From contig CAIZFE010000065.1 of assembly GCA_903932145.1 (NCBI GenBank), positions 62,001 to 126,000 of the forward strand: 64,000 bases of DNA. Reading direction: 5' to 3'. Source of the stretch: an uncultured Rhodopila sp. (GTDB lineage: Bacteria; Pseudomonadota; Alphaproteobacteria; Acetobacterales; Acetobacteraceae). The stretch's first letter is position 1. Each line of letters begins with the position of its first letter. The translations under genes and the position numbers were made by a program. The notes under the pieces are model-generated. The model saw nothing but the letters and a program-made list of their open reading frames with translations. It did not search any database and was not told the origin of the DNA. This document shows, piece after piece, positions 1-23,737 of the stretch.

Positions 1-1383
1 GCCGTCCGTATAGACGTGAACCAGCGCGCCGGCCTGGTTCATCTGCACGAGGTTGAACGAGATGCCGAATTTCACGGGTGTCAGCGCCAGGCCGCGCTTG
101 ATCCAGGGATTCGCCGCGTTGAAATTTTCGACGCCCGCCCGCCGTTCGGCGTACTGCGACTGTTCGGCGAGGACGTTGACCAAATCGGGGATGACGTTGT
201 CCTCGATCACCGCATGATACGGCGTCACGTTGCGGTCTGTGGTGCCGTAGAAGTTGCGTTGCCTTACCGTCAGCGGATCAAGTCCCAGAGTGCGGGCAAT
301 TTCGTCGACAACCTGTTCGATGCCCATCATGCCCTGCGGACCGCCGAAACCACGGAAGGCTGTGTTCGAGACTGTATTGGTCTTCAGGCGATGGGAGACG
401 ATCCGCACATTCTCCAGATAGTAACAATTGTCGCAATGCAGCATGGCTCGGTCGTTGATCGCGTTGGACAGGTCGGGCGACATGCCGCAGCGGCTGGCGA
501 GTTCGAACTCGATGCCCTGTATGCGGCCTTCGGCGTCGAAACCGACGTCGTAGTCGATACGGAAATCGTGCCGTTTGCCGGTCAGAACCATGTCGTCGTC
601 GCGGTCGAGCCGTAACTTGACCGGCCGTTTGGTGCGCTGCGCCAACAAGGCCGCGACGGCGGCGATCAGCGAGGCCTGGGATTCCTTGCCGCCGAACGCA
701 CCGCCCATGCGGCGGGTTTCTGTCACGACGGAATGGTCGGATAGCTTCAAAGCTTTAGCGACGAGGTGCTGCACCTCGGTCGGGTGCTGGGTGGAGGAAT
801 AGACCAGCATATCGCCGTCCTCCCCGGGGATCGCCATGGCGACCTGGCCTTCGAGGTAGAAATGTTCCTGGCCGCCGACGTCGATCCGGCCGGAGAGACG
901 ATGCGGTGAACGGGCCAAAGCGGCGGCGGCATCGCCCCGTGCCATGGTTTGTGTCGGCAGCAGGATGTTGTGCGCGGCCAGCGCCTCGTCGATGGTGATG
1001 ATCGCGGGCAGAACGTCGTATTCAATGGTCGCGGCCATGGCGGCTCTACGGGCGCCCGCCATGCTGTTGGCGGCGACGGCGAAGATGGATTGACCGCAAT
1101 ACTCCACCAGCCCGTCGGCGAAGATCGGGTCGCCCGGCAAAGCGGGGCCGACGTCGTTGACACCGGGTACGTCGGCGGCGGTCATGACGGCGGCCACGCC
1201 CGGCATCGCCGCGGCGGCGGTCACGTCCAGTTTGGTGATGCGGGCGTGCGCGTGTTCGGATAACCGGATGTAGGCATGCAGGAGGTTCGCCGGTTCAGGC
1301 AGGTCGTCGATGTAAAGCGCCTCGCCGCTGACATGCTTGGTGGCGCTGTCGTGCGCTACGTTTTGGCCGACCGGGGCGTTCAT
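1..1383 (-). CDS. xdhB: Xanthine dehydrogenase, molybdopterin-binding subunit (partial, C-terminus off the window)
   Basis: Large subunit of xanthine dehydrogenase, which oxidises hypoxanthine and xanthine to urate at the molybdenum cofactor. I translated the reverse strand directly: the frame is open from the ATG at 1383 to the window edge, about 461 residues. It shows the molybdopterin-contact motifs GGAFGGKE and FRGFGGPQG and an N-terminal a/b hammerhead region (SGEALYIDDLPEP). The start overlaps the xdhA stop by 4 bases (ATGA), so the two subunits are translationally coupled. The rest of the gene, and probably xdhC, lies to the left of the window. Family assignment is secure; substrate (xanthine) is supported by the neighbouring urate genes. 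Confidence 0.95.
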   Translation of the reverse strand, partial: MNAPVGQNVAHDSATKHVSGEALYIDDLPEPANLLHAYIRLSEHAHARITKLDVTAAAAMPGVAAVMTAADVPGVNDVGPALPGDPIFADGLVEYCGQSIFAVAANSMAGARRAAMAATIEYDVLPAIITIDEALAAHNILLPTQTMARGDAAAALARSPHRLSGRIDVGGQEHFYLEGQVAMAIPGEDGDMLVYSSTQHPTEVQHLVAKALKLSDHSVVTETRRMGGAFGGKESQASLIAAVAALLAQRTKRPVKLRLDRDDDMVLTGKRHDFRIDYDVGFDAEGRIQGIEFELASRCGMSPDLSNAINDRAMLHCDNCYYLENVRIVSHRLKTNTVSNTAFRGFGGPQGMMGIEQVVDEIARTLGLDPLTVRQRNFYGTTDRNVTPYHAVIEDNVIPDLVNVLAEQSQYAERRAGVENFNAANPWIKRGLALTPVKFGISFNLVQMNQAGALVHVYTDG

Positions 1384-2795
1384 ACCGGAGCCTCCAGTCT
1401 TGTCCGGGGTGCGTCGGCGCTGGCTTCCAGGAAGACCTTAAACAACAGATTGGCCGCGATGGTTCGGCGATACCCCGCGCTCGCCCGCATGTCGGAAATT
1501 GGGGTGAAATCGGCTTCCAGGGCCGCCATCGCGGATCGCACGGTGGCCTCGGTCCAGGGCTTGCCCAGCAAGGCGGCTTCGGCGTTGCGGGCGCGCGCCG
1601 GGGTGGCGGCTACGCCGCCAAAACCCATGCGAATGTCTCGCACGGTGCCGTCCAGGATGGTGGTTCGAAAGGCGGCACAGACGGCCGAGATGTCCTGGTC
1701 GAACCGTTTTGCCGTTTTGTAGCAGTGGAAACTTTGGCCGGGCGCGGCGACTGGGATGTCGATGCGCTCGATGAACTCGCCGGCGGCCAGGACGGTGCGG
1801 CGGTAGCCGGTAAAGAAGTCCTCGATCGGAACATTGCGCCGGCCGGTGCCTCGGCGCAGCACCAGCGTCGCGCCAACGGCGATCAGGGCCGGTGGCATAT
1901 CGCCAATGGGGGAGGCATTGCCGATGTTGCCGCCGATGGTGCCACGATTGCGGATTTGCCGCGATCCGATCCGCCGGATGAGCAGACCGAGGTCCGGGTA
2001 GTGCGCCTGCAGCACGTCCAGTGCGTCCTCATAGGTCGCGCCGGCACCAATGCGGATGATGCCGCCGGATTCATCGATGCCTGCCATATCCGTGACCGCA
2101 TCGAGCGCCACGATGTACTTCAGGTCGCGGTGCTGCTTGGTAACCCACAGACCGACATCGGTGCCGCCGGCCAGCAGCACCGCATCAGGATGCGCCAGCA
2201 ACGTCTCCGCCAGTTCGTCGGTAGAGCGCGGTGCGATATAGGTCTGGCCCGCATGGTTTAGCGTCAGGGTTTTCGACGTATCCAGTGCCAGGTTCGCGGC
2301 GGGGCGGTTATCGGGTGGCGCGGCGCATGCGTCCAAGGCGGCATCGACGATCGGCCGGTATCCCGTGCAACGACAGAGATTGCCAGCCAGGGCCTCGTTG
2401 ACAGCCGTGCGATCCGGGGTCCCGTCGCTCTGTCGCAGCGCATACAACGACATGACAAAACCCGGCGTACAGAAACCGCATTGTGAGGCGTGGCGGTCCA
2501 CCATCGCCTGCTGCACCGGATGCAGCGCTGTGTCCGGTTGGCGCAGGTGTTCCACGGTCAGCAGTTGCTTGCCGTCCAGCGCCGGGACGAAGACGATGCA
2601 GGCGTTGACCGCACGCTGTTGCTTGCCGTCATTCAGGACGACCGTGCAGGCGCCGCAATCGCCCTCGGCGCAGCCTTCCTTGGTGCCGGTCAACCCCGCG
2701 GTTCCGCGCAGGTATTCCAGCACCGTCAGGGTCGGGCTGACCTGCCGAAGTTCTTGCTTCTGGTCGCCCAGGAGGAAATGGACGGAGTCACGCAC
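1380..2795 (-). CDS. xdhA: Xanthine dehydrogenase small subunit (2Fe-2S and FAD domains)
   Basis: Electron-transfer subunit of xanthine dehydrogenase, 471 residues. The N-terminal ferredoxin-like domain carries GCAEGDCGAC; the second [2Fe-2S] domain has QCGFCTPG and NLCRCTGYRPI; the remainder (about 190-470) is the FAD-binding domain with LLAGGTDVGLW and a TIGGNIGNASPIGD motif. I choose the GTG at 2795 because a GAGGG ribosome-binding site lies 9 bases upstream; an in-frame GTG at 2816 has no such site. It is first in a two-gene operon with xdhB and is divergent from the cysteine hydrolase/permease operon. The start is inferred, the function is firm. Confidence 0.95.
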   Translation of the reverse strand: MRDSVHFLLGDQKQELRQVSPTLTVLEYLRGTAGLTGTKEGCAEGDCGACTVVLNDGKQQRAVNACIVFVPALDGKQLLTVEHLRQPDTALHPVQQAMVDRHASQCGFCTPGFVMSLYALRQSDGTPDRTAVNEALAGNLCRCTGYRPIVDAALDACAAPPDNRPAANLALDTSKTLTLNHAGQTYIAPRSTDELAETLLAHPDAVLLAGGTDVGLWVTKQHRDLKYIVALDAVTDMAGIDESGGIIRIGAGATYEDALDVLQAHYPDLGLLIRRIGSRQIRNRGTIGGNIGNASPIGDMPPALIAVGATLVLRRGTGRRNVPIEDFFTGYRRTVLAAGEFIERIDIPVAAPGQSFHCYKTAKRFDQDISAVCAAFRTTILDGTVRDIRMGFGGVAATPARARNAEAALLGKPWTEATVRSAMAALEADFTPISDMRASAGYRRTIAANLLFKVFLEASADAPRTRLEAPV

Positions 2796-3322
2796 TGGCC
2801 AAAGCCCTCGACACACCGATCCACCGCTGCTGACTGGTCACGATGCCTGCCTCCGTTTTATTCAACGCTCACCAATTGGAAGCTAACGGCAATCGGCGGG
2901 CAAGGGTCAATCGCCGAATGTGACACGAACCGCGAAAAGCCCGCAAAACGGGCATAAATATCGATTTGGGCAATTTATGGACACATCGTGATACAATATT
3001 GGTGTATTGATGTAATAACAGTCAAATCTGTCGCAGACACCTCTTCCCGCGGCAGCGAATAGCGCACCGCTTGCATCCGACCGCTCACAATCCGAGCGTT
3101 CTTAAGTTGGAAACACGGCGGTGGGACGGGTGCCCGCAGCCACGAACGGCCTGTCGCCTCATAATCGACCAGGATGGCATGTGGGTTGCACGTCTTTGAC
3201 GCGAGTTTGCGCATGGGGGTCGATGCGATGCCGGAACTGCGGGACGCGGATACACTTCTTGCCGGTGCAGGCGCGGTTCGGCCGCGAACAGCCCGGGGGT
3301 CGCTGCTGATCCTGGTATCGCC
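2796..3322. other. Divergent intergenic region between xdhAB and the hydrolase/permease operon
   Basis: About 530 bases without a credible gene; the short open frames here lack ribosome-binding sites and homology I recognise. It holds a clearly AT-rich patch near 2955-3020 that includes an imperfect inverted repeat ATACA-N7-TGTAT at 2991-3007, a possible operator for a regulator encoded elsewhere. It also holds the sigma-54-type promoter listed separately at 3175-3190. I did not identify a promoter for xdhA. Confidence 0.5.
3175..3190 (+). promoter_or_regulatory. Sigma-54 (-24/-12) promoter before the cysteine hydrolase/permease operon
   Basis: TGGCATGTGGGTTGCA matches the RpoN consensus TGGCACG-N4-TTGCW at all but one position and keeps the invariant GG-N10-GC spacing. 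It lies about 130 bases before the start at 3323. Two more such sites occur at this locus in the right orientation for their genes, which makes chance matching less likely. Confidence 0.7.
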
Positions 3323-3988
3323 ATGATCGACATCGCCGCGGAACCATATGCTTTTTCATTCGATCCGCCTCGGGCGGCGCTGTTGATCATCGACATGCAG
3401 CGCGACTTCCTGGAACCCGGCGGCTTCGGCGAAATGCTGGGCAATGACGTGTCGCAGTTACGCCGGACCATCGAACCGAACCGGCGCCTGTTGGCCGCAT
3501 GGCGAGCCGCCGGACTGATGGTGCTTCACACCCGTGAAGGCCACCGACCGGATCTGGCGGATCTGCCGCCGGCCAAGAAGATCCGCGGCCGTAGTGCCAC
3601 CTGTATCGGCGATCCCGGCCCCATGGGCCGCATCCTGGTGCGCGGCGAGGCCGGTCACGACATCATTCCCGAACTTTATCCCGTGGCCGGCGAGCCTGTG
3701 ATCGACAAGCCCGGCAAGGGCGCCTTCTTCGCCACCGATCTGCACGCCATCCTGCAAAACCGCGGCATCTCGCAGCTTGTCGTGACAGGCGTCACGACGG
3801 AAGTCTGCGTCAACACCACGGTTCGCGAGGCCAACGACCGCGGCTACAACTGCCTCGTGCCCGAGGACTGCGTCGGCTCCTATTTCCCCGAATTTCAGGC
3901 GATGGGCCTGAACATGATCAAGGCGCAGGGCGGCATCTTCGGATGGGTCGGTACCTCGAAGGACGTGATAGCGGCACTGAAACAATAG
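3323..3988 (+). CDS. Cysteine hydrolase of the isochorismatase superfamily, biuret/triuret hydrolase-like (copy 1)
   Basis: 221-residue soluble amidohydrolase. The Asp-Lys-Cys triad of the family is visible as D24 ([10 protein letters not shown]), K129 (VIDKPGKG) and C162 (TTEVCVNTT), with spacings of 105 and 33 residues. The conserved [10 protein letters not shown] and IGDPGP.GRIL blocks match biuret hydrolase-type enzymes, which cut C-N bonds of biuret or triuret. It is a clear paralogue of the gene at 12208, but the loop after the catalytic Asp differs (RDFLEPGGF against [10 protein letters not shown]), so the substrate may differ. It precedes the purine permease by 16 bases and follows a sigma-54 promoter. 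Triuret, a urate oxidation product, is a reasonable guess; other ureides are possible. Confidence 0.8.
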
Positions 3989-4004
3989 TCACAGGAGCGA
4001 CGCG

Positions 4005-5585
4005 ATGAGTGGAGCGGCGACGGCTTTCAAACCCAAATTCTGGGTTCCCGGCGACTGGAACGCGTTGTTCGGCTTCGGCACGAATATTCTGGTCAACGTG
4101 CTGGTGTTGACCGGACTTCTGCGTTTTGTCCTGAAAATGCCCGACGACCTGGTGTTTGGCCGCATCTTGCCCGCGCTCGGATTAATGCTGTGCCTGAGCA
4201 CCTGTTACTACGCGTTCCTGGCCTGGAGGCTTGCGAAACAAACCGGCCGGACCGACGTGTGCGCGCTGCCATCGGGTATCAGTGTACCGCACATGTTCGT
4301 CGTGACCTTCGTGGTGATGTTGCCGATCCTGATCGCAACGAAAGATCCGGTGCAGGCATGGGAAGCCGGCCTGACCTGGGTGTTCGTTCAGAGTTTCGTG
4401 CTGATGGCGGGCGGCTTTGTCGGTCCTTACATTCGCAAGATAACGCCGCGCGCCGCCCTGCTCGGTTCGTTGGCGGGTATCTCGATCACCTTCATCTCCA
4501 TGAGCCCGGCGGCGCAGGTGTTTTCTACTCCGGTGATCGGCGTCGTCTGCTTCGCGGTAATTTTGGCGAACTGGTTTGGCGGCGTAAAATATTTCGGCGG
4601 CGTCCCCGGCGGTCTGGTGGCGATCGCGGCCGGCACGTTGATCGCCTGGTTGTCCAATCTGTTCGGTCTGGGATACGGCGAACTGACCGGGGCGAAATTG
4701 GCCGCCTCTGTGTCCAACTTCGGATTTTCGTTTCCGATCCCGGCGATCGGGCATGTGTTCGGCGGCTTCAAATATCTCGGCGTGATCCTGGTGACCGCGA
4801 TCCCGTTCGGCATCTACGATCTGATCGAGGCTTTGGATAACGTCGAAAGCGCCGCCGCCGCCGGGGATTCTTTTCCGACCACACGGGTGCTGACCGCCGA
4901 CGGCGTGATCAGCCTGATCGGGTGTTTGTTGGGCAATCCGTTCATCAACGCGGTCTATATCGGCCATCCCGGCTGGAAGGCGATGGGCGGCCGGATGGGA
5001 TACTCCGCCGTAACCGGGATATCGGTGCTGGTCCTGACATGGTTCGGCATCATCGCGGTGATGATGGCGCTGATCCCGGTGGTCGCCATCCTGCCCATCC
5101 TGCTGTATATCGGGATGCTGATCGGTTCGCAGGCGTTCCAGGAATCGCCGCACCGGCACGCGCCGGCGATCGTGTTGGCGCTGCTGCCGCAACTCGCGGC
5201 CTGGGGCAAGACACAGATCGACAACGCGCTGGGCGCCGCTGGCACCAGTGCGCATGAGATCGGCATGGCCAAACTGGCGCAGGTCGGCGTGCTGTATCAC
5301 GGGCTGGAAGTGTTGGGGGGCGGGGCGACGCTGGCCGGGATCATCCTGGGTGCGATCACCGTATTCATCATCGACCGGGAATTCGAGAAAGCGGCCGCCT
5401 TCGCACTCGCGGGGATGGTTTTCACCTTCTTCGGCTTCATCCATGGCGAGGCGATCATGTTCGCCAGTTCTCCGGCCGTGGCCGTGTCGTATCTGGGGGT
5501 CGCGGTGGTGCTGTTCGTGTGTTCGAAATACGCCGAGTTTTCGCCATTGCCTGTGGAAATGCATCTCGGGCAGGAAGCGGATTGA
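4005..5585 (+). CDS. NCS2-family purine/uracil-xanthine permease
   Basis: 526-residue polytopic inner-membrane protein with about 12-14 hydrophobic segments and the family-typical early Pro/Gly-rich helices (ALPSGISVPHMF, KITPRAALLGSLAGI). NCS2 carriers import purines, xanthine or urate by proton symport. The start has an AGGAG site (positions 3992-3996) 8 bases upstream. It lies in one operon with the cysteine hydrolase and faces the urate-degradation genes, which supports a purine or ureide substrate. The exact substrate cannot be read from sequence. A perfect hairpin follows its stop. Confidence 0.88.
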   Translation: MSGAATAFKPKFWVPGDWNALFGFGTNILVNVLVLTGLLRFVLKMPDDLVFGRILPALGLMLCLSTCYYAFLAWRLAKQTGRTDVCALPSGISVPHMFVVTFVVMLPILIATKDPVQAWEAGLTWVFVQSFVLMAGGFVGPYIRKITPRAALLGSLAGISITFISMSPAAQVFSTPVIGVVCFAVILANWFGGVKYFGGVPGGLVAIAAGTLIAWLSNLFGLGYGELTGAKLAASVSNFGFSFPIPAIGHVFGGFKYLGVILVTAIPFGIYDLIEALDNVESAAAAGDSFPTTRVLTADGVISLIGCLLGNPFINAVYIGHPGWKAMGGRMGYSAVTGISVLVLTWFGIIAVMMALIPVVAILPILLYIGMLIGSQAFQESPHRHAPAIVLALLPQLAAWGKTQIDNALGAAGTSAHEIGMAKLAQVGVLYHGLEVLGGGATLAGIILGAITVFIIDREFEKAAAFALAGMVFTFFGFIHGEAIMFASSPAVAVSYLGVAVVLFVCSKYAEFSPLPVEMHLGQEAD

Positions 5586-5600
5586 CACTTGTTCGATATT

Positions 5601-5631
5601 CGGTGTGGCCGCACTCAGTTCGGCCACACCG
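5601..5631. terminator. Bidirectional hairpin between convergent permease and uraD-uraH genes
   Basis: Perfect 11-base-pair stem, CGGTGTGGCCG pairing with CGGCCACACCG around a 9-base loop, in the 47-base gap between two convergent stop codons. There is no long T-tract on either side, so it may be an atypical or bidirectional terminator. Confidence 0.7.
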
Positions 5632-5632
5632 A

Positions 5633-6484
5633 TCAGCTTCCACGATACGTGGTATAACCGTAGGGCGAGAGAAGCAGCGGAATGTGGTAGTGGCTGGCCG
5701 GATCGGTGATACGAAACCGAATCGGGATCAGATCGTAGAAACCCGGGTCCCCTGCCCCGCCGCGCCATCCCTCGACATCGAAGATGATTTCATACGTGCC
5801 TATTTGCAGGGCACCTGCCGACAGAAGCGGCGAATCGCAACGGCCGTCGGCGTTCGTCTGCCACATGCCGATCTTGCTGCGTTGGTCATCGCTGATCCGA
5901 TACAGCGTCAGGGGCAGGCCGGCGGCCGGCAAACCGGTGGCCGTATCGAGCGCATGAACGGTCAGATAACCATCAGGTTTGATCATATCCTCCAGGCGGA
6001 AGCGGGCGATTTTAGCCACCTCGGCCAAGGCCGTTGCCCGTTCCTGATCGTTCGAATGCGCCACGCGCCGGGACAGCGCCGCCAGAATCGCGGCCCGATC
6101 GCGCTGCCCGCGCACGGCGATGATGAACGGAAAGCCGAAGCGGCTTCGGTACGCCGTGTTCAGCGCATCGAATTGCGCGGCTTCGTCGGCATCCAGCCGA
6201 TCCAGTCCCTTACTGCCTTGTTCCGCTGCCGACGCAGCCGTCAGCGTGGCGCGCCGAGCCAGCTCGGGATGCGCACAGAGAAGGGCCAGTTTTTGTTCCG
6301 GTTCGGCATGATCGACAATCTCGACCATCGTTGCGTGCAAGCTGTCCAGCGATGCGAACGGACGCGCCGCACAGGCGGCGCGCGGGACCCATGGCGAATG
6401 CTCGAAGATGCCGCCGAGGATTTCCGTGAAACGGTCCGCATCGAGGGCGTTCAACGCGGCCATGGTTAGTTTCGTTTGGGACAT
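5633..6484 (-). CDS. Bifunctional OHCU decarboxylase / 5-hydroxyisourate hydrolase
   Basis: Fusion of UraD (about residues 1-165) and UraH (about 170-283), the two enzymes that turn 5-hydroxyisourate into (S)-allantoin after urate oxidation. UraD features include FEHSPWVP, HPELA and RFGFPFIIAV. UraH features include LTVHALDTATG, TNADGR, and the diagnostic C-terminal YRGS preceded by YHIPLLLSPYGY. The ATG at 6484 lies 2 bases after the puuD stop, so it is co-transcribed with puuD. A longer reading from 6517 would overlap puuD without a better ribosome site. The single polypeptide performs both post-PuuD steps; free UraD and UraH also exist in bacteria. Confidence 0.92.
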   Translation of the reverse strand: MSQTKLTMAALNALDADRFTEILGGIFEHSPWVPRAACAARPFASLDSLHATMVEIVDHAEPEQKLALLCAHPELARRATLTAASAAEQGSKGLDRLDADEAAQFDALNTAYRSRFGFPFIIAVRGQRDRAAILAALSRRVAHSNDQERATALAEVAKIARFRLEDMIKPDGYLTVHALDTATGLPAAGLPLTLYRISDDQRSKIGMWQTNADGRCDSPLLSAGALQIGTYEIIFDVEGWRGGAGDPGFYDLIPIRFRITDPASHYHIPLLLSPYGYTTYRGS

Positions 6485-6486
6485 GG

Positions 6487-7689
6487 TCAATCCAGCTTCG
6501 AACCGGCAACGATCCAACTACCAAGCTGAGCACGTTCCGCGTCGGTGATTTCGGTCACGTTGCCCAGGGGCATCGTGTGGGTCTTGACCGCCTGCGCCAT
6601 GATTTGGGGCGCCTGGCGTTTGATTTGCGCAGGGGTATCGAACATGACGCCTTTTGGCGCCTCCGCGAAACCGGGGAATTGCGGTTTCGCCGCGTGACAG
6701 ACATGGCAGCGTTGATCGACGATCTGTTTGGCGTCGGCAAACGTCACCGGAGCGGCTCCCGCATCAGCGACCGACACCCGCGGTTGGCTTAAAACGCCAA
6801 GGCCGATGGCACAGATCACCGGCACGGCGGCGGCTGGCCACAGGCGCCAGTCGGGTTTGGCGCCGGCATGCATGGTATTGAACCAATGCCGCACCAGGAA
6901 GCTGGCGATGAAAATGCACGCCAGGATCAGCCAACTCCAGCGCGGCGATGAGTAGGTGAAGGAATAATGGTTGCTCAGCATCGTGAACACGACAGGCAAC
7001 GTCAGGTAGTTGTTGTGGATCGAGCGCTGCTTGGCGACCTGTCCGTGGATGGGGTCGGGTTGCTGACCGGCGAGAAGGGCGGCGACGACTTTACGTTGTC
7101 CGGGAATGATGACGATCAGCACGTTGGCGGCCATAATCGTGCCGACCAGGGCGCCCACCTGAATGAAGGCGCCGCGTCCGCTAAAGACGTGCGTATAGCC
7201 ATACGTAGCGACGAGAAACAGCATGAAACCGGAGATCGCGAGGCGCGCGGTCGTGCGCCCGAACCAGGACCGGCACATCAGGTCATAGAGAAACCAACCG
7301 ATAACCAGCGATGCCACTGAGGCCGGTATCGCGTCGGCGGCGTCGATATTCATCACCGCCGGATCGATCAGATACACGGATGGATTGAGGTAGTACGTCA
7401 GTACCAGCAGCACAAAACCAAAGATCCAGGTGCCGTAGGCCTCCCATTTGAACCAGGTCAGGTGCTCCGGCATGAATTCCGGCGCGACGGAGAATTTTTG
7501 GATGTTGTAGAAGCCGCCGCCGTGGACCTGCCAAGCCTCGCCTTTGACGCGCGGATCGAGGCGCGCGTTGCGCTGCAGGCCGGCATCGAGGGCGATGAAA
7601 TAGAATGAGGAGCCGATCCAGGCGATCCCCGCGATCACGTGCGTCCAACGGACCAGCAGGCTGATCCAGTCAAGCAGCGTATCGATCAT
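6487..7689 (-). CDS. puuD: Membrane urate hydroxylase (urate oxidase) with cytochrome c domain
   Basis: 400-residue PuuD-type enzyme that converts urate to 5-hydroxyisourate in the inner membrane and passes electrons to cytochrome c rather than O2. The N-terminal DUF989-type part has several membrane helices (VRWTHVIAGIAWIGSSFYF, the CRSWFG region, a helix near 270). The C-terminal domain carries one heme-c site, CHVCH, near residue 330. Neighbours fit: the next gene, 2 bases on, handles the product. It explains why no soluble uricase is needed. Transcription may start in the 60 bases after the terminator at 7715-7742. Confidence 0.94.
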   Translation of the reverse strand: MIDTLLDWISLLVRWTHVIAGIAWIGSSFYFIALDAGLQRNARLDPRVKGEAWQVHGGGFYNIQKFSVAPEFMPEHLTWFKWEAYGTWIFGFVLLVLTYYLNPSVYLIDPAVMNIDAADAIPASVASLVIGWFLYDLMCRSWFGRTTARLAISGFMLFLVATYGYTHVFSGRGAFIQVGALVGTIMAANVLIVIIPGQRKVVAALLAGQQPDPIHGQVAKQRSIHNNYLTLPVVFTMLSNHYSFTYSSPRWSWLILACIFIASFLVRHWFNTMHAGAKPDWRLWPAAAVPVICAIGLGVLSQPRVSVADAGAAPVTFADAKQIVDQRCHVCHAAKPQFPGFAEAPKGVMFDTPAQIKRQAPQIMAQAVKTHTMPLGNVTEITDAERAQLGSWIVAGSKLD

Positions 7690-7714
7690 CGTTGGTTTCC
7701 TGATTCGTAAAACG

Positions 7715-7742
7715 TGCGCGGCGATCCGGAGACCGCCGCGCA
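7715..7742 (-). terminator. Intrinsic terminator after the Tsx-like gene
   Basis: On the reverse strand TGCGCGGCG pairs with CGCCGCGCA (9 base pairs, 10-base loop), followed two bases later by TTTT. It lies in the 60-base gap between the Tsx-like stop and puuD, so puuD probably has its own promoter or depends on read-through. Confidence 0.7.
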
Positions 7743-7749
7743 GACGCTA

Positions 7750-8592
7750 TCAGAAGTGGTATTCGATACCAAGCACCGGAGAGATTTCCTCGGAACCGGA
7801 AACCTTCGTATGGTCGTTGCCGAATTTGTTTTCCCACAGTTCGACCTGGAAATACGCATACAGGGTATGCGGCTTTTTGAACATCAGATCGCCGATATCC
7901 AAATCGATTTGCGGGCGGGCCAGAACTTCGGTCTTGGTCTGGACGCCAAATCCGTCCTTGCCTTTCGGCAGCACGACATTGGTGAAGCCTTTAAAGTCCA
8001 GCGGCAGGTTGGTGAACGTCAGTGGGAAGAACCAAACGATTTCGAATTCCGCGGTGGTGTCGAAGCTGACATCCTTGCCGACGATGCCGTTGTGGTTCCA
8101 CTCATGGTAAGCATGGACACCGACATTGACGAAGCCGACCGGCACATCCAGGTGGAAGTTCGGACCGACGACGATTGCCTTCTTGTCCGCCCCGAACGCG
8201 TTATTTTCGCCTTCCAGGTCGCCACCAATTTCGAAGTTGATCGCCTTGAACGGCCCGATAGCGGTGTTCACGCCGAGAAATTTGTCCGGGCTGAACTGGC
8301 CGCGGTAAAGCGCATAGAACTCGGTTGAACCACCGGGCGAATTCGCCGCCGGTTCGTTGGGGTTGGACAGAAGGATGTCGAGGTTGACGAAGTTTGAACC
8401 GTACGCGCCGGCGTCGAAATGGCCGAAGTTCGTGATAACCTTGTTGACGTCCCGGCCGCCCTTTTCGGCACCCGGATTGGAGATGGTGGTGCCGTCACGG
8501 ACACCAATCCAGGTATCGGTGAATCCGTCTGCGTGAGCCTGGGTGGCAGTCGCTGCCAGGGCCGCCGCGAATATCAAATGTCTCAGTTGCAT
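7750..8592 (-). CDS. Tsx-like outer-membrane channel (nucleoside-type porin)
   Basis: 280-residue exported protein with a signal peptide (LRHLIFAAALAATATQAHA) and the pattern of a small beta barrel: alternating strands, a final GIEYHF ending in Phe, and Tsx-family-like segments (FTDTWIGVRDG, PHTLYAYFQVELWENKFG). Tsx proteins admit nucleosides and related compounds through the outer membrane. The ATG at 8592 has AAGGA 7 bases upstream; an ATG at 8619 would place that site inside the gene. It is divergent from the BMP ABC operon, with its own sigma-54 promoter at 8682-8697. Position suggests it is the outer-membrane entry for the same substrates. Confidence 0.8.
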   Translation of the reverse strand: MQLRHLIFAAALAATATQAHADGFTDTWIGVRDGTTISNPGAEKGGRDVNKVITNFGHFDAGAYGSNFVNLDILLSNPNEPAANSPGGSTEFYALYRGQFSPDKFLGVNTAIGPFKAINFEIGGDLEGENNAFGADKKAIVVGPNFHLDVPVGFVNVGVHAYHEWNHNGIVGKDVSFDTTAEFEIVWFFPLTFTNLPLDFKGFTNVVLPKGKDGFGVQTKTEVLARPQIDLDIGDLMFKKPHTLYAYFQVELWENKFGNDHTKVSGSEEISPVLGIEYHF

Positions 8593-8681
8593 AGCGTAAT
8601 CCTTTTCCTTCAGCCCCATGGGTCCGTCTGCCGCGAGCGGATGACCACGCGAGCATCGTTGCGTCGCGCAACCTTATAGTC

Positions 8682-8697
8682 AGCAATCGATGTGCCA
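8682..8697 (-). promoter_or_regulatory. Sigma-54 (-24/-12) promoter for the Tsx-like gene
   Basis: Read on the reverse strand as TGGCACATCGATTGCT, an almost perfect RpoN site (TGGCAC, N5, TTGC plus T) with GG-N10-GC spacing. It lies 90 bases before the ATG at 8592. Confidence 0.78.
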
Positions 8698-8978
8698 CGG
8701 GAGCGGGTCGGAGCACCGAAACGTCCATTGGATGACGGTTGCGAGACAGTGATGGAAATGCGCAACAGTTTCGTGGCGATCGGGCTGATACGACGGCCAT
8801 CCAACGAAGATTGATCGGAGGCGGCCGGCGACCCATCCGCGTTTATTTCTCGCACAAGGTAACCTCTTGGACATAATGCGACAACATTCACGCCTATATT
8901 TTAACGTTATGGTGTTTTTATGAGCATTTCACTCATCCACGGCAGTTGCTTATGCCCTGCATGGGCTACATTTAGAAA

Positions 8979-8994
8979 TGGCATGCCCTTTGCG
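8979..8994 (+). promoter_or_regulatory. Sigma-54 (-24/-12) promoter for the BMP ABC operon
   Basis: TGGCATGCCCTTTGCG keeps GG-N10-GC and the TGGCA.G...TTGC core, about 100 bases before the start at 9091. An inverted repeat (8954-8966) lies just upstream and could be a regulator or IHF-proximal site. Confidence 0.7.
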
Positions 8995-9090
8995 TAACCA
9001 TTTCCAGGTTCGGGCTATCGCCAACCCGAATCCGATGCGCCGTGCCGGTTGATGCGCAACGGACATCATCTCGCGAATTGGGGGAAAAGC

Positions 9091-10215
9091 ATGCCTGTTT
9101 CCACAGCCCTGTCACGACGCCACCTATTGCAAAGTACCGCCGGGGCCGCCGGCCTCGCCGCGGTCGGCCTGTCCGCACGCGAAGCGCAGGCGGCGAAAGA
9201 TCTTGTCGTGGGCTTTATCTATGTCGGCCCGAAAGACGATTACGGCTACAATCAGGCGCATGCCGAAGCAGCAGCGATGCTGAAGAAGATGCCCGGCGTG
9301 AAGATCGTCGAGGAAGAAAAAGTTCCCGAAACCGATGACGTCTCCAAAACCATGGAGAGCATGATCAAGCTGGATGGCGCAACACTGCTATTCCCCACCA
9401 GCTTCGGCTACTTCGACCCGTACATGCTGAAAATGGCGGCTAAGTATAAGAGTGTCGAGTTCCGCCACTGCGGCGGCTTGTGGCAAGCAGACAAGCACCC
9501 GATGAATACGGGTTCGTATTTCGGCTATATCGGCATGTGCCAGTATCTGAACGGGATCGCCGCGGCGCACGCGACGAAAACCAAGAAGATCGGTTTCATC
9601 GCGGCCAAGCCAATCCCTCAGGTCCTGATCAACGTCAACAGTTTTGCGCTTGGGGCGCGGTCGGTTGACCCGACCATTACGACGTCGGTGATTTTCACCG
9701 GTGAATGGTCGATGCCGGTGAAAGAGGCGGAAGCCACCAACAGCCTGATCGGCCAGGGTATCGATGTCGTCACCTGCCATGTCGATGGTCCGAAGGTCAT
9801 TATGGAAACGGCGGAGCGCCGTGGCATCTACACCTGTGGATACCACGCCGATCAGTCCAAGCTGGCACCGAAGGGCTATCTGACCGGCGCCGAATGGAAT
9901 TGGATCACCGTCTATAAGCAGTTCATCGCCGATGCCCAGGCTGGCAAGCCCATTCCGAACTTCACCCGTGGCGGCCTGGCGGAAGGCTTCGTGAAGATGT
10001 CCCCTTTTGGACCGGCTCTACCCGAAGCCGGCCGCAAGAACGTCACGGCCGTCAAGGCGGAGATCATGAAAGGCGGTTACTCGGTATTCAAAGGGCCGTT
10101 GAAGGACAACAAGGGCAACGTCGTCGTTGCGGCCGGCAAGTCTCTGCCGGAAACCGCGATCGAGCTGGAATCATGTAATTATCTCGTGGAAGGGGTCGTT
10201 GGCTCAATCGGATGA
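9091..10215 (+). CDS. BMP-family ABC transporter substrate-binding protein, Tat-exported
   Basis: 374-residue periplasmic binding protein of the Bmp/PnrA (Med) family, which binds nucleosides and similar small molecules. The N-terminus has a twin-arginine signal (SRRHLLQ followed by a hydrophobic stretch to AQAA). Mature motifs include VVGFIYVGPKDDYGYNQAH and GFIAAKPIPQVLINVNSF, typical of the family. The ATG at 9091 is preceded by GGGGGA at good spacing; upstream in-frame starts lack a site. It leads a five-gene operon with overlapping stops and starts. Tat export suggests folding before export; the ligand is unknown but the locus points to a purine-derived or ureide compound. Confidence 0.9.
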   Translation: MPVSTALSRRHLLQSTAGAAGLAAVGLSAREAQAAKDLVVGFIYVGPKDDYGYNQAHAEAAAMLKKMPGVKIVEEEKVPETDDVSKTMESMIKLDGATLLFPTSFGYFDPYMLKMAAKYKSVEFRHCGGLWQADKHPMNTGSYFGYIGMCQYLNGIAAAHATKTKKIGFIAAKPIPQVLINVNSFALGARSVDPTITTSVIFTGEWSMPVKEAEATNSLIGQGIDVVTCHVDGPKVIMETAERRGIYTCGYHADQSKLAPKGYLTGAEWNWITVYKQFIADAQAGKPIPNFTRGGLAEGFVKMSPFGPALPEAGRKNVTAVKAEIMKGGYSVFKGPLKDNKGNVVVAAGKSLPETAIELESCNYLVEGVVGSIG

Positions 10216-11291
10216 ACACCCTGATCGCGGCGACCGATCGCTGGTATCCCCTCCGCCGTTCGGCGGAGGCGGTGCTGGCACCTCTGGTGGCTCTGATCGG
10301 CGCGGCGGTGCTGTTTTCGATCTTCCTATTGTTTCTGGATGCGTCGCCGCTGGATTTTCTTGATCTGGTCTGGCGTGGCGCCTTTGGAAGCTCGTTTTCA
10401 TTACAGAATACTGTGCAGCGGGCAGCACCTTTGCTGTTGACCGCGTTGTGCGTCGCTATTCCGGGTCAGCTCGGTTTGGTGATCATCGGTGGCGAGGCGG
10501 CGGTCGTGCTGGGCGGTCTTGCCGCCACTGTCGCGGCGCTGCCGTTGATCAATACCAGCCCGATCGTGGTCTGGGCGGCGATGGCGGTCGCCGGGTCGGC
10601 AATGGGGGCGTTCTGGATTGGCATCAGCGGTTGGCTAAAGGCGAAGCTGAACGTTAATGAAACCATCGCGAGCCTGGTCCTGGCCTACGTGGGACTGGCT
10701 CTGTTCAATCATTTCGTCGAGGGTTTGCTGCGCGATCCGGCCAGCCTGAACAAGCCGTCCACCTACGGCATCGGCGACGACAACATGCTGGGCACCGTGC
10801 CCTGGTTCGATGTGCATCCGGGATTGCCGGTCGGTATCGTTGCCTGTGTGTTGTGCTGGGTGCTGATTTATCGCACCAGCGTTGGATTTGCCTGCCGCGT
10901 GACTGGCGGCAATATCCGAGCGGCCCAGTTGCAGGGACTGCCGGTGACGAAGCTGATTTTGCTGGCGTGTGCGATCGGCGGCGGCTGCGCGGGACTTGCC
11001 GGCGCGATTCAGGTCGCGGCGGAGTATGGCCGGGCGAATGCGTCCTTGAATGCCGGGTTTGGCTATACGGGTATTTTGATTGCGTTTTTGGCGCGGTTCA
11101 ATCCCCTGGCGATCATACCGATGGCGATCCTGTTGGGCGGGCTTGGTGCAGCCGGAGGGCTTTTGCAGCGGCGCATGGGCTTGCCGGATGCGACGATCCA
11201 GGTGTTGCAAGGGCTGATCTTCGTTTCGATCCTGGCCAGCGATACGTTGTATGGACGGTTCCGCTGGTTCCAGCCGGGAGCAACGACATGA
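10212..11291 (+). CDS. ABC transporter permease, BMP/nucleoside-type (first)
   Basis: 359-residue inner-membrane permease of the BPD_transp_2 family (ribose/nucleoside type), with around 8-10 hydrophobic segments and the signature NVNETIASLVLAYVGLAL that marks the first permease of BMP systems. The start overlaps the binding-protein stop (ATGA at 10212-10215), indicating translational coupling. It pairs with the next permease to form the membrane channel. Confidence 0.92.
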   Translation: MNTLIAATDRWYPLRRSAEAVLAPLVALIGAAVLFSIFLLFLDASPLDFLDLVWRGAFGSSFSLQNTVQRAAPLLLTALCVAIPGQLGLVIIGGEAAVVLGGLAATVAALPLINTSPIVVWAAMAVAGSAMGAFWIGISGWLKAKLNVNETIASLVLAYVGLALFNHFVEGLLRDPASLNKPSTYGIGDDNMLGTVPWFDVHPGLPVGIVACVLCWVLIYRTSVGFACRVTGGNIRAAQLQGLPVTKLILLACAIGGGCAGLAGAIQVAAEYGRANASLNAGFGYTGILIAFLARFNPLAIIPMAILLGGLGAAGGLLQRRMGLPDATIQVLQGLIFVSILASDTLYGRFRWFQPGATT

Positions 11292-12205
11292 TGGACTCGG
11301 TCGGCACGGTTCTGTTGGCGATGTTGGCTGGCAGTTTGCGGGTTAGCACGCCGTTCTTGTTCGTCAGCCTGGGCGAGTGCCTGACCGAAAAATCGGGACG
11401 CATCAATTTGGGGAATGAGGGCGTTCTCGTCCTCGGGGCGATGGTTGCGTACGCAACGTCCTACGAAACAGGCAGTCCGTGGGCCGGGGTACTGGCGGCA
11501 GCGGTGGCGGGATTGCTGCTGGGCGCGCTGCACGGCGGCGTTTGTTCGCTGGCCAGGGTAAACGATGTCGCGATGGGCATTGCCATTATGCTGGCCGGGA
11601 CCGGGATCGCGTTCTTTTTCGGCAAACCATACGTGCAACCGAGTGCAACGTTATTGCCGGGTATTCCGGTCGGATTTTGGTCGGACAATGCCCAGGTGCG
11701 TAATGCGTTGCTGGTGTGTCCGTTGTTCCTGTTGGGGATCGCCGCGGCGGTGGCACTGCATTGGTGCTTCAACGCAACCCGGGTCGGGCTTCGCATCCGC
11801 ATCGTCGGCGACAGTCAGGACGCTGCCCTGGCGCTGGGTTTGCCGATCGACCGCACCCGGTTGCTCGCCACGGCTTTTGGCAGTGCGCTGGCCGGTATCG
11901 GCGGCGCGTTTTTGTCTTTGTATTACCCCGGAAGCTGGAATGAAGGACTGTCGTCCGGCCAGGGATTGATGGCGGTGGCGCTGGTGGTGTTCTCGCGGTG
12001 GAACCCGATCAACTGCATTTATGCCTCGTTGCTGTTCGGCGCCGCCGGAGCATTGGGACCGTCGTTGCAAACCGTGGGCATCACCTGGGGGTATTACCTG
12101 TTCTACGCGGCGCCTTATATTGTCACATTGGTTGTGTTGATCCTCACCGCTCGGGGTGGCCGGTCCTTGCGCGGCATGCCCGGGCAATTATCGATTGGAC
12201 GGTGA
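11288..12205 (+). CDS. ABC transporter permease, BMP/nucleoside-type (second)
   Basis: 305-residue BPD_transp_2 permease. The family-typical opening is present: [20 protein letters not shown] followed by [16 protein letters not shown]. The ATG at 11288 overlaps the first permease stop by 4 bases; the frame is open further upstream but that is read-through of another frame inside the first permease. It is followed 2 bases later by the biuret hydrolase-like gene. Role: second half of the import channel. Confidence 0.92.
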
Positions 12206-12207
12206 AC

Positions 12208-12885
12208 ATGGCAACAATCGCATCCGATCCGTATCCCTGGCCCTTTGATGGGTCGCTGTCGCCCGGTAATACGGCATTGATCGTCATCGACATGCAGACC
12301 GATTTTTGCGGCGTTGGTGGGTATGTCGATACGATGGGCTACGATCTGTCGCTGACTCGCGCCCCGATCGGGCCGATCAGTGCGGTTTTGGCGGCGCTGC
12401 GACCGAAGGGCTTCACGATCATCCATACACGGGAGGGTCACCGGCCAGACCTGTCCGACCTTCCCGCCAACAAACGCTGGCGCTCCCAACGGATCGGCGC
12501 CGGCATCGGCGATCCCGGCCCGTGCGGCCGCATTCTGACGCGCGGCGAACCGGGGTGGGAGATCATTGCCGAACTTTCCCCCCTGCCCGGTGAAATCATC
12601 ATCGACAAACCGGGCAAAGGCAGCTTCTACGCGACCGATCTGGAACTGATCCTGCGCACCAAGGGCATCACGAACATTATCCTGACCGGGATCACAACCG
12701 ACGTCTGTGTCCACACCACGATGCGTGACGCTAACGACCGTGGGTTTGAGTGCCTGCTGCTGGCGGATTGTTGCGGTGCCACCGATCCGGGGAACCATAC
12801 CGCCGCGTTGCACATGATCAAGATGCAGGGTGGTGTGTTCGGCGCCGTCAGCGATAGCGCGACGTTCCTGGCGGGATTGGCATGA
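12208..12885 (+). CDS. Biuret hydrolase-like cysteine hydrolase (copy 2) inside the ABC operon
   Basis: 225-residue isochorismatase-superfamily hydrolase, very like biuret amidohydrolase (biuret to allophanate plus ammonia). Triad: D28 (VIDMQTDF), K134 (IIDKPGKG), C167 (TTDVCVHTT), separated by 106 and 33 residues. The blocks [36 protein letters not shown] and ADCCGATD match what I know of the biuret hydrolase family. It starts 2 bases after the permease stop and its TGA overlaps the ATG of the ATPase gene, so it is embedded in the transporter operon: the compound imported is probably its substrate or precursor. Biuret is the best guess; carboxybiuret or another ureide remains possible. Confidence 0.85.
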
Positions 12886-14396
12886 CTCACGCGATTGGCG
12901 TCGAGGCGATCGGCATCGGCAAGCATTTTGGCAGTTTTCACGCGTTGTCGGATGTTTCGCTGAAAGTCCGGCCGGGCAGTGTGCACGGACTGTTGGGCGA
13001 AAACGGCGCCGGCAAATCGACACTGGTGAAATGTCTGTTGGGCTACTATCAGGCCGACGCGGGCAGCTTCGTCGTCGACGGCCGTGAAGCCACGATCGCG
13101 CGCCCCGCCGACGCGGATGCGTTGGGCCTCGGCATGGTCTATCAGCATTTCACCTTGGTGCCGTCGATGACGGTGGCCGAAAACCTGGTTATGTCTCGCC
13201 GGAATGTTCCGGGTGTTATCAACTGGCGCACCGAAATCGACGGACTGACGCAGTTCATGCAGCGTATGCCGTTCAAAGTGCCGCTGAATGCTGTCGTCGG
13301 AAACCTCGCCGCCGGAGAGCGGCAGAAGACTGAGATCATTAAACAGCTTTATCTGGAACGTAAATTTCTGGTTCTGGACGAGCCGACATCCGTTCTGACT
13401 CCACAGGAAGCGACCGAGATGCTCGGTCTGGTACGTGGGCTGGCGCATTCCGGCGCACTGACGATCGTGATCATTACGCATAAGCTGAAAGAAGTCGCGG
13501 CGTTCGTCGATGACGTCACGGTTCTGCGCCGAGGCCGCATGGCGGGCACCGGTGCGGTAAAGGATCTCGGCCCCACCGACCTGACGGCCATGATGATCGG
13601 GGAGCCGCACGCCCCCAAGGACCCGGAACGAAAAGGCACGCCAACCAGCGAGGCTCGGCTAGCAGTGACCGCGTTGCGCACGGCCGACGATGGCGGACGC
13701 AAGGGATTGTCGATCGATTCGCTGACGGTGCGAGCCCACGAGATCGTCGGTATCGCCGGTGTGTCAGGGAATGGGCAGAAAGAACTGGTGGAGGTCCTGG
13801 GCGGACAACGACCATACGCATCGGGCAGCGTCATGGTCGATAACGAACCTTATTTCGCGACCCGCGAGCAGTCGCAGGCACACGACGTCCGGGTATTGCC
13901 GGAGGAACCGTTACGCAACGGCTGCGTGCCGCCGATGACCGTGGTGGACAATCTCAATCTTCGTAGTTTCGACACCGGTGCGAAGAAATCCTGGCGATGG
14001 TGGCTGGACCGCGCCGGCATGGCGGCTCGCGGACAGTCGATGATCGCGGCCTATGGTATTCGGACGCCGTCTCCTCAGGCACCAATCGGCGTTTTGTCGG
14101 GCGGAAACGTGCAACGATGCGTGCTGGCACGCGAACTGGACGGTGATGTCCGGTTGTTGATCGTGGCAAATCCTTGTTTTGGGCTGGATGTGAAGGCTGT
14201 GGCGGAAACACGGGCGCGGATCATGGCCGCCCGCAACAGCGGGACGGCGGTTCTGCTGATCTCGGAGGATTTAGACGAGATCCTGGAACTCGCGGACCGG
14301 ATCGTTGTAATGCACGATTCCGCTGTCGTGCATGAAATGCCAGCCGCGGGGGCCGATCCGCAAGAAATCGGTCGCCATATGCTTGGACATCATTAG
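12882..14396 (+). CDS. ABC transporter ATP-binding protein with two nucleotide-binding domains (BMP/nucleoside type)
   Basis: 504-residue duplicated ATPase that powers the BMP importer. Domain 1 has Walker [10 protein letters not shown], a divergent signature ([11 protein letters not shown]) and Walker [12 protein letters not shown]. Domain 2 has a degenerate P-loop ([10 protein letters not shown]), a full LSGGNVQR signature and [12 protein letters not shown] as Walker B, the usual asymmetry of ribose- and nucleoside-type ATPases. It is last in the operon and overlaps the hydrolase gene by 4 bases; more often the ATPase follows the binding-protein gene. A strong hairpin lies downstream. Confidence 0.93.
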
Positions 14397-23494: not shown

Positions 23495-23737
23495 CGGAGT
23501 TTCCCTCATTGCCACCGCATCAGGGCAGACTTGCGGTATCCGAGGCAAGCCCCGTCAGCCGGCTGGCTGCGAGTGGTTAGCACCGGCCGGTCCCGCGCCA
23601 CGGGATGATTTTATCGCGACACCAGCGATTTTCTCGTTCCTGTTAACCGATTGTTTACCTCTTGGTGGTCTTATGGGCCGCGCACGGGCAACGATGCGCG
23701 TTTCTAACAGTCAGTCGTATAAGCGGAGAAGCCATTC

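What the first reader, a model, noticed from the sequence alone, without database searches (positions are those of the whole stretch)
1..14396. Purine/ureide nitrogen locus combining urate oxidation with a biuret-type hydrolase-loaded ABC importer
xdhAB, NCS2 permease, PuuD, UraD-UraH, a Tsx-like channel, a BMP ABC importer and two biuret/triuret hydrolase-like enzymes stand side by side. Known enzymology: urate yields allantoin by PuuD/UraH/UraD, while non-enzymatic urate oxidation can give triuret, which related cysteine hydrolases degrade to biuret and allophanate. I infer a dual scavenging unit that handles both enzymatic and oxidative products of urate. No allantoinase is visible, which leaves the end of the main route outside the window or absent.
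Basis: partly seen in the sequence, partly recalled or inferred. Interest (0 to 1): 0.8.

Follow-up and report, generated by a model that had tools for sequence, protein, structure and literature searches.

The report
Urate and triuret nitrogen-recycling gene cluster
A bacterial gene cluster that breaks down purines through urate also carries a near-complete kit for triuret, a compound that forms when urate is damaged by oxidants, together with an undescribed transporter family that travels almost only with the triuret enzyme.

Summary
Hydrolase 1 (3323-3988) is a triuret hydrolase by sequence (6 of 6 TrtA-specific residues; same clade as Herbaspirillum TrtA). Hydrolase 2 (12208-12885) passes NCBI's biuret-hydrolase cut-off. 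Upstream on the contig lie xdhC, two deaminases, a second BMP importer, 8-oxoguanine deaminase and atzF-atzG-atzE-atzH: about 27.5 kb from purine to urate and from triuret to ammonia. Allantoinase PuuE is on another contig. Among 35 related genomes puuD lies about 5 kb from biuH in 7 of 11 with biuH, and trtA abuts xdhA in 5 of 22 with trtA. Elsewhere urate linkage is rare: 0 of 80 named trtA loci carry puuD. The shared cluster is real in this lineage but no general rule. That the cell makes its own triuret from urate is untested; the urate-to-triuret idea is in print. New: trtA's downstream neighbour, an SLC23/26-fold permease without Pfam or NCBIfam match, lies directly downstream of trtA in 30 of the 31 genomes that hold it (299 searched), so it is a candidate triuret transporter. 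biuH and atzE alternate beside trtA (32, 15, both 0 of 80).

The parts
1..1383 (-). xdhB, molybdenum subunit of xanthine dehydrogenase, N-terminal 461 of 772 aa (gene runs off the window to C65:61065)
   Evidence: TIGR02965 725.4 bits on the partial protein; the cut-off 849.5 is for the whole; full frame
1380..2816 (-). xdhA, small subunit of xanthine dehydrogenase (GTG start as listed; a later start is possible)
   Evidence: TIGR02963 620.3 over 467 bits
3323..3988 (+). trtA, triuret hydrolase of the isochorismatase-like family
   Evidence: best PDB match Herbaspirillum TrtA 6xix, E 3.1e-80, 60% identity; 6 of 6 TrtA-discriminating residues and the triad
4005..5585 (+). trtA-partner permease, SLC23/SLC26 fold, no Pfam or NCBIfam family; candidate triuret transporter
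   Evidence: AF2 pLDDT 90.5; Foldseek to SVCT1, SLC26Dg, UraA, UapA; directly downstream of trtA in 30 of the 31 genomes that hold it among 299
5633..6484 (-). uraD-uraH fusion, OHCU decarboxylase plus hydroxyisourate hydrolase
   Evidence: TIGR03164 186.8 over 96.25 and TIGR02962 120.9 over 87.45
6487..7689 (-). puuD, membrane urate oxidase with a C-terminal CxxCH motif
   Evidence: PF06181 419.8 bits; motif read in the translation; cytochrome c Pfam matches below cut-off
7750..8592 (-). Tsx-like outer-membrane beta-barrel channel
   Evidence: no Pfam match; AF2 pLDDT 75.2, best PDB match Tsx 1tlw E 1.1e-8
9091..10215 (+). BMP-type (PnrA-like) substrate-binding protein
   Evidence: PF02608 122.4 bits; nearest solved sequence is the atrazine periplasmic binding protein 6pi5, E 2.4e-63
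10212..11291 (+). ABC importer permease 1
   Evidence: open frame in the operon; not scanned itself; its counterpart in the upstream importer is PF02653
11288..12205 (+). ABC importer permease 2
   Evidence: PF02653 129.2 bits
12208..12885 (+). biuH, biuret hydrolase, inside the ABC operon
   Evidence: NF050097 420 over 370 bits; best PDB match Rhizobium BiuH 6azo E 7.4e-121; BiuH-type residues YYSDTV
12882..14396 (+). ABC importer ATPase
   Evidence: PF00005, 2 stretches, 139.5 bits

Best explanation
The locus is a purine-nitrogen supercluster of about 27.5 kb (C65:48912-76396; window -13.1 to 14.4 kb) that joins a urate pathway to a triuret/biuret pathway. Shown by sequence: 8-oxoguanine deaminase, two small deaminases and XdhABC (to urate), PuuD and UraD-UraH (urate to allantoin), PuuE elsewhere (allantoin to allantoate); TrtA, AtzG-AtzE-AtzH, BiuH and AtzF; a Tsx-like channel, two BMP-type ABC importers and an SLC23/26-fold permease. 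Inferred: triuret, from urate or purine oxidised in the habitat or in the cell, enters by the permease beside trtA; TrtA turns it into carboxybiuret; this is either deaminated by AtzGE and decarboxylated by AtzH to allophanate, or loses CO2 to give biuret, which BiuH turns into allophanate; AtzF releases the last ammonia. Grouping the two pathways would let one unit harvest nitrogen from intact and oxidised purines. I put the enzyme assignments at about 0.85, the shared-function reading at about 0.55, and own-cell urate as the main triuret source at about 0.25.
For: TrtA/BiuH identity. Upstream enzymes. PuuE. Recurrence among 35 genomes of the family's nearest members (33 of the genus): puuD 4.5-4.8 kb from biuH in 7 of 11 biuH genomes; trtA abuts xdhA in 5 of 22 trtA genomes; a PF06181 match in 15 of 22 trtA genomes (14 over cut-off) and 0 of 13 without trtA. 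One other genus: G175 has biuH, xdhABC, a deaminase, trtA and a BMP importer in about 15 kb. G007 has puuE-uraD, uraH and puuD beside atzHEGF. G005 and G017 put puuD, xdhABC and atzFGE on one contig. In 299 genomes of the order, puuD is in 26 of 41 with trtA and 41 of 258 without. Triuret arises from urate with peroxynitrite or peroxide (PMC7948467, parts and passages; PMC5703782, passages).
Against: Most trtA loci elsewhere hold no urate gene: 0 of 80 with puuD; of the 57 with at least 6 kb on both sides, 1 holds any of PuuD, UraD, UraH or XdhA-C at 35% identity or more. None of the 42 family genomes of other genera shows puuD within 20 kb of trtA or biuH on one contig, although 23 of them have a long PF06181 match (broken assemblies may hide cases). 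Of 15 genomes with a PF06181 match in the near set, trtA lies within 5 kb of puuD in 3 (G000, G004, G010); in G015 and G026 a contig end falls between. In G010, where trtA sits among the urate genes, the permease is not found. Co-occurrence counts are not corrected for kinship or genome size. No activity, expression or transport was tested, and I made no systematic search for a regulator.
Confidence: 0.6

Rival explanations
1. The two arms are independent nitrogen-scavenging sets that sit together because both are turned on by nitrogen shortage; triuret and biuret come from outside (fertiliser impurity, amoebae, plants) and have no metabolic tie to this cell's urate.
For: trtA loci in the named set lack urate genes (0 of 80 with puuD); trtA travels with its own permease instead; the biuH importer recurs without urate genes in other classes and phyla (L030, L038, L040, L045, L082) and in nitrifiers, where upstream purine genes were absent (PMC12625717 passages).
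Against: In the genus trtA or biuH stays beside xdh or puuD in several genomes although gene order changes, and another genus shows biuH-xdhABC-trtA (G175).
Confidence: 0.35
2. The atzG-atzE-atzH set acts on oxalurate, the role implied by the names hpxX/hpxZ in Klebsiella, and not on carboxybiuret; it would finish the allantoin side or take oxalurate made when singlet oxygen attacks urate.
For: The AtzH-like protein passes the HpxZ cut-off (195.5 over 135) and its best PDB match is 2rcd, ahead of AtzH; the AtzG-like protein matches pADP-1 AtzG only at E 0.059; Klebsiella carries the same trio; parabanate from urate hydrolyses to oxalurate (PMC5703782, passages).
Against: The window genome's AtzE is 78-79% identical to AtzEs next to trtA (L021, L037, L039) and 52% to the Klebsiella one; all 15 atzE-bearing loci among the 80 named trtA loci lack biuH and 12 of the 15 carry atzF; Terrarubrum has trtA-permease-atzF-DUF4089-atzE-hpxZ in one run; pADP-1's own AtzH is also named HpxZ.
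Confidence: 0.15
3. The neighbourhood is a by-product of descent: one accidental juxtaposition kept by a young genus without selection for joint function.
For: In these samples puuD linkage to trtA or biuH was seen in one genus only.
Against: Gene order differs between genus members while membership is kept; trtA occurs both with its permease away from the urate genes (G005, G012) and beside xdhA (G010, G015, G026).
Confidence: 0.08

Closest known systems
Herbaspirillum / Rhizobium triuret pathway (trtA, biuH, atzF)
   Same: TrtA and BiuH by residues and clade, AtzF by curated cut-off
   Different: here joined to xdhABC, puuD and uraD-uraH, and an atzGEH route is present too; PMC7948467 shows no urate-gene linkage in the parts and passages I saw (supplements not seen)
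Nitrifier biuH-trtA-atzF-bmpA-nupABC clusters (PMC12625717)
   Same: biuH with a BMP-type importer and trtA
   Different: those genomes lacked known upstream purine genes according to the passages seen
Pseudomonas sp. ADP cyanuric acid operon atzDGEHF
   Same: AtzG, AtzE, AtzH and AtzF families
   Different: 54% AtzE identity; no atzD match in the genome, though no control rang in that search; trtA would supply the carboxybiuret instead
Klebsiella hpx genes (hpxX, AtzE family protein, hpxZ)
   Same: same three-gene set in a purine-related context
   Different: 52% AtzE identity; atzF and trtA accompany it here
NCS2 / SLC23 nucleobase transporters (UraA, UapA, SVCT1)
   Same: predicted fold over most of the length
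   Different: no sequence match to Pfam, NCBIfam or, by profile, the PDB

Membership tests
TrtA triuret hydrolase | isochorismatase-like domain with D24, K129, C162 and substrate residues F29, E72, K132, Q202 | tested here: met
   PF00857 157.1 bits; all residues present in an ungapped alignment to Herbaspirillum TrtA
TrtA triuret hydrolase | F35, N41, A134, E160, Y187, I205, which differ from BiuH (positions from PMC7948467) | tested here: met
   6 of 6; the same 12-residue pattern in 119 of 188 aligned proteins
TrtA triuret hydrolase | groups with Herbaspirillum TrtA apart from BiuH | tested here: met
   clade of 127 with both and without BiuH references, local support 0.826
TrtA triuret hydrolase | hydrolyses triuret, barely biuret | not testable with these tools
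   needs purified enzyme
BiuH biuret hydrolase | curated NCBIfam cut-off | tested here: met
   hydrolase 2 420 over 370; hydrolase 1 fails with 281.2
BiuH biuret hydrolase | Y, Y, S, D, T, V at the six discriminating positions | tested here: met
   hydrolase 2 carries YYSDTV like Rhizobium BiuH
PuuD urate oxidase | Urate_ox_N domain | tested here: met
   419.8 over 26.9 bits
PuuD urate oxidase | C-terminal cytochrome c domain | tested here: inconclusive
   CxxCH motif in the translation; Pfam matches E 0.048 and 0.082, below cut-off
1-carboxybiuret hydrolase AtzGE with AtzH | AtzG-like, AtzE and AtzH-like families in one run | tested here: met
   PF13318 62.2 over 24; TIGR02715 685 over 425.75; PF11533 194.5 over 27
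1-carboxybiuret hydrolase AtzGE with AtzH | Tyr22 and Arg46 of AtzH (PMC6219798) | tested here: met
   Y19 and R43 of the window genome's protein fall under them if numbering is shifted by 3, an offset I inferred from the R73K chain in the same alignment
1-carboxybiuret hydrolase AtzGE with AtzH | AtzE rather than the oxalurate-type relative | tested here: inconclusive
   closest to trtA-linked AtzEs (78-79%), about equally far from pADP-1 AtzE (54%) and Klebsiella (52%); HpxZ cut-off also met
NCS2 permease | family profile match | tested here: not met
   no Pfam family at E up to 1, none in NCBIfam at E 0.001
SLC23/SLC26 fold transporter | fold | tested here: met
   Foldseek E 1.4e-7 to SVCT1, 1.5e-7 to SLC26Dg, 2.9e-6 to UraA; TM-scores about 0.5-0.7
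Tsx nucleoside channel | family profile match | tested here: not met
   no Pfam family at E up to 1
Tsx nucleoside channel | beta-barrel fold like Tsx | tested here: met
   1tlw E 1.1e-8, TM 0.63-0.73, rmsd 5.9-6.1; model pLDDT 75.2, so moderate
8-oxoguanine deaminase | curated NCBIfam cut-off | tested here: met
   NF006055 671.1 over 532, gene upstream of the window

The most novel reading that the evidence does not exclude
The permease directly downstream of trtA founds an undescribed SLC23/26-fold family that imports triuret, and this lineage has brought it, trtA, biuH and atzGEHF together with its urate and 8-oxoguanine genes as a unit for oxidatively damaged purines, which would point to the missing biological source of triuret: oxidation of urate by or near the cell itself.
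Probability: 0.3. Interest if true: 0.75.

Novelty: new variant of a known kind. Interest (0 to 1): 0.55.

Why it matters
The natural source of triuret is unsettled; PMC7948467 names urate oxidation as the hypothesis. A genome that keeps urate oxidation and triuret breakdown in one place is a ready test case for it. The permease that accompanies trtA almost without exception where it occurs is an easily tested candidate for a triuret transporter, and public annotation names one copy 'regulator'. The alternation of biuH and atzE beside trtA suggests that carboxybiuret has two fates in nature: loss of CO2 to biuret, or direct deamination.

Tried and rejected
Rejected: that both hydrolases are biuret hydrolases (hydrolase 1 fails the BiuH cut-off, and carries the TrtA residues). 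Rejected: that either is a RutB-type ureidoacrylate hydrolase (112.3 and 125.2 bits against 377.95). Rejected: that the genome lacks an allantoinase; cyclic allantoinase TIGR03178 gave nothing over cut-off (best 239.7 of 357.85), but PuuE is there. Rejected as general: urate linkage of trtA. Led nowhere: AtzD in the own genome (no match, but no control rang); promoter and terminator scans (6 and 16 found against 4.9 and 13.8 in shuffles); L037's uraD, 79.5 bits under the 96.25 cut-off; profile search of the permease in the PDB (no match); a clustering of recurrent neighbours in the 80 loci, which besides the known partners showed mostly mirror frames and regulator-like genes I did not identify further. 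GuuH (guanylurea hydrolase) was considered; I had no GuuH sequence, so that rival for hydrolase 1 is answered only by the TrtA residues and clade. The biuH/atzE alternation is not absolute: G144 has both within 10 kb (L142), and the window genome has both on one contig.


Full report
WHAT IS THERE. The window is G000:C65:62001-126000 of a 6.66-Mb genome in 115 contigs. Its first 14.4 kb hold, in order: xdhB (cut) and xdhA on the minus strand; hydrolase 1 and a permease on plus; uraD-uraH, puuD and a Tsx-like channel on minus; and a plus-strand operon bmp, permease, permease, hydrolase 2, ATPase. Next comes a 643-aa frame that I recognise from memory as glutaminyl-tRNA synthetase. I fetched the 60 kb to the left. 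The cluster continues there: xdhC (TIGR02964, 288.6 over 161.6), two tandem cytidine-deaminase-type proteins (PF00383), a second BMP-type importer, 8-oxoguanine deaminase (NF006055, 671.1 over 532), and on the plus strand atzF (TIGR02713, 656.1 over 511.05), atzG (PF13318), atzE (TIGR02715, 685 over 425.75) and an atzH/hpxZ-type gene (PF11533 and NF033625). The whole run is C65:48912-76396.

THE TWO HYDROLASES. Hydrolase 1's best solved relative is Herbaspirillum triuret hydrolase TrtA (6xix, E 3.1e-80), at 60% identity. PMC7948467 (parts 1-3 of 6 of its text read; passages) lists six positions at which TrtA and BiuH differ. Hydrolase 1 has the TrtA residue at 6 of 6, plus the triad and substrate residues. 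Hydrolase 2 has the BiuH residues and passes the curated BiuH model (420 over 370), which hydrolase 1 fails (281.2). In a FastTree tree of 188 sequences, mostly from the fetched loci, hydrolase 1 and Herbaspirillum TrtA share a clade of 127 that excludes hydrolase 2 and Rhizobium BiuH, with local support 0.826.

URATE ARM. XdhABC makes urate, PuuD oxidises it, and UraH and UraD carry the product to allantoin (established knowledge of these families). Cyclic allantoinase is absent over cut-off, but PuuE is present at C109:183192-184076 (495 over 424.6), on another contig.

THE PERMEASE. The protein encoded 16 nt after trtA matches no Pfam family even at E 1, no NCBIfam family, and no PDB sequence by profile. 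AlphaFold2 with 51 aligned sequences gives pLDDT 90.5, and Foldseek finds SVCT1, SLC26Dg, BicA, UraA and UapA (E 1e-7 to 4e-6, TM-scores about 0.5-0.7). In 80 named trtA loci it is present in 64 and directly downstream of trtA in 61. In a 299-genome sample of the order, 31 genomes have it (E 1e-30 or better), and in 30 of the 31 it lies 12-206 nt downstream of trtA on the same strand; the remaining one is a partial match in a genome without a trtA match. Of 41 trtA genomes there, 30 have it; of the 11 without it, 9 have biuH, against 7 of the 30 with it. In G010, one of the genomes with trtA among the urate genes, it is not found. So it belongs to triuret use and is a candidate triuret importer; no transport was tested.

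RECURRENCE NEARBY. Of 59 relatives searched, 35 belong to the same family, counting the window's own (33 of the same genus); these 35 were searched for PF06181. trtA (69% identity or more) is in 22 of 35, PF06181 in 15 of 35 (14 over the cut-off), all 15 among the 22. The 11 biuH genes all lie in the BMP importer operon as far as their contigs reach. puuD is 4.5-4.8 kb from biuH in G000, G005, G010, G012, G015, G020 and G026; in G017 and G019 a contig end splits the pair; in G007 they are on different contigs; G029 has no PF06181 match. trtA abuts xdhA in G000, G004, G010, G015 and G026, and lies within 5 kb of puuD in G000, G004 and G010. G005 has importer, biuH, tsx, puuD, xdhABC, a deaminase, atzFGEH and 8-oxoguanine deaminase on one contig, with trtA elsewhere; G017 has puuD, xdhABC, a deaminase and atzFGE; G007 has a puuE-uraD fusion, uraH and a 43%-identical puuD beside atzHEGF. 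In another genus, G175 has biuH, xdhABC, a deaminase, trtA and a BMP importer within about 15 kb, and no PF06181 match.

RECURRENCE FURTHER OFF. Urate genes are rare near trtA. Of these 80, at 35% identity or more, 0 have puuD, 0 xdhA or xdhB, 0 uraH, 1 a uraD (below its curated cut-off) and 1 an xdhC (over its cut-off); 57 have 6 kb or more on both sides, and 1 of the 57 holds such a gene. The test for urate oxidase used the PuuD type only. Of 42 family genomes of other genera with a trtA or biuH match at E 1e-60, 27 match PF06181, 23 of them with long matches; none is within 20 kb of trtA or biuH on one contig, the nearest being about 62 kb, but broken assemblies may hide cases. Genome-wide, puuD is in 26 of 41 trtA genomes and 41 of 258 others, uncorrected for kinship and genome size.

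TWO FATES OF CARBOXYBIURET. In the 80 named loci biuH is beside trtA in 32 and atzE in 15, never both (hypergeometric chance 1.6e-4, ignoring kinship). An atzH-type gene is with 17 of the 32 and 15 of the 15. A cultured example, Terrarubrum flagellatum plasmid NZ_CP091852, reads trtA, permease (annotated 'regulator'), atzF, DUF4089, atzE, hpxZ. The window genome's AtzE is 78-79% identical to trtA-linked AtzEs and 52-54% to the Klebsiella and pADP-1 proteins. I read this as TrtA feeding AtzGE directly in one group and BiuH in the other. Against it: the HpxZ model is also met, and the AtzG-like protein matches pADP-1 AtzG only at E 0.059. The window genome and G144 carry both routes.

WHAT IS KNOWN. 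trtA-biuH clustering, the TrtA product carboxybiuret, and urate oxidation as a suspected source are in PMC7948467. biuH-trtA-atzF with bmpA-nupABC is in PMC12625717 (passages), which says upstream purine genes were absent there. atzGEH clusters in other nitrogen contexts, including with allophanate hydrolase and ABC transporters, are in PMC6219798 (passages; section 14). I found no paper in the held library on trtA or biuH beside urate-oxidation genes, nor on the permease (search listings); most subscription papers are not held, and supplements were not seen.

HOW IT LIKELY WORKS. Bases and oxidised bases enter through the Tsx-like channel and the importers; the nearest solved sequences are an atrazine periplasmic binding protein for BMP 1 and the basic membrane lipoprotein 3s99 for BMP 2, so I judge purine-like or triazine-like ligands more likely than biuret. 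Deamination and XdhABC give urate; PuuD, UraH, UraD and PuuE carry it on. Triuret enters by the permease and is mineralised by TrtA, AtzGE/AtzH or BiuH, and AtzF. Shown: gene identities by sequence, and linkage. Inferred: substrates, uptake, regulation and the source of triuret.

VERDICT. A real, lineage-specific union of two known pathways plus a new candidate transporter family; a new variant of a known kind, interest 0.55.

Noticed in passing
L005:10812-12152 (C65:52812-54152): 8-oxoguanine deaminase in the same cluster; relatives (74-86% identity) sit by the second BMP importer's permeases in G010 and G015 and beside atzFGEH in G005, which fits an oxidised-purine theme.
   Followed up: partly
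plasmid listing: 288 plasmid records match TrtA, 92 of them at 60-80% identity, including many Escherichia coli plasmids at about 71%. Why such plasmids would carry a triuret-hydrolase-like gene is unexplained.
   Followed up: no
L177:12703-14304: The trtA-partner permease is annotated 'regulator' in a public plasmid record, probably a misnomer.
   Followed up: partly
L005:17213-18181: Two tandem cytidine-deaminase-type proteins beside xdhC; at least one is beside xdhC in 10 of 10 genus stretches that hold xdhC. Possibly guanine deaminases, not tested.
   Followed up: partly
window 19922-23548: A 1208-aa frame that looks like a 5-oxoprolinase/hydantoinase (recognised from memory by its start, not scanned), about 5.5 kb from the cluster.
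   Followed up: no
L147:9677 (G205): A hydrolase 55% like BiuH with Tyr where TrtA and BiuH have Lys132 and Glu where they have Gln202 (TrtA numbering); possibly another ureide specificity.
   Followed up: no
L012, L016, L018, L026 and loci such as L047-L049: biuH-type trtA loci carry an atzH-type gene without atzE, which suggests AtzH relatives that decarboxylate carboxybiuret, the role named TrtB in print.
   Followed up: partly
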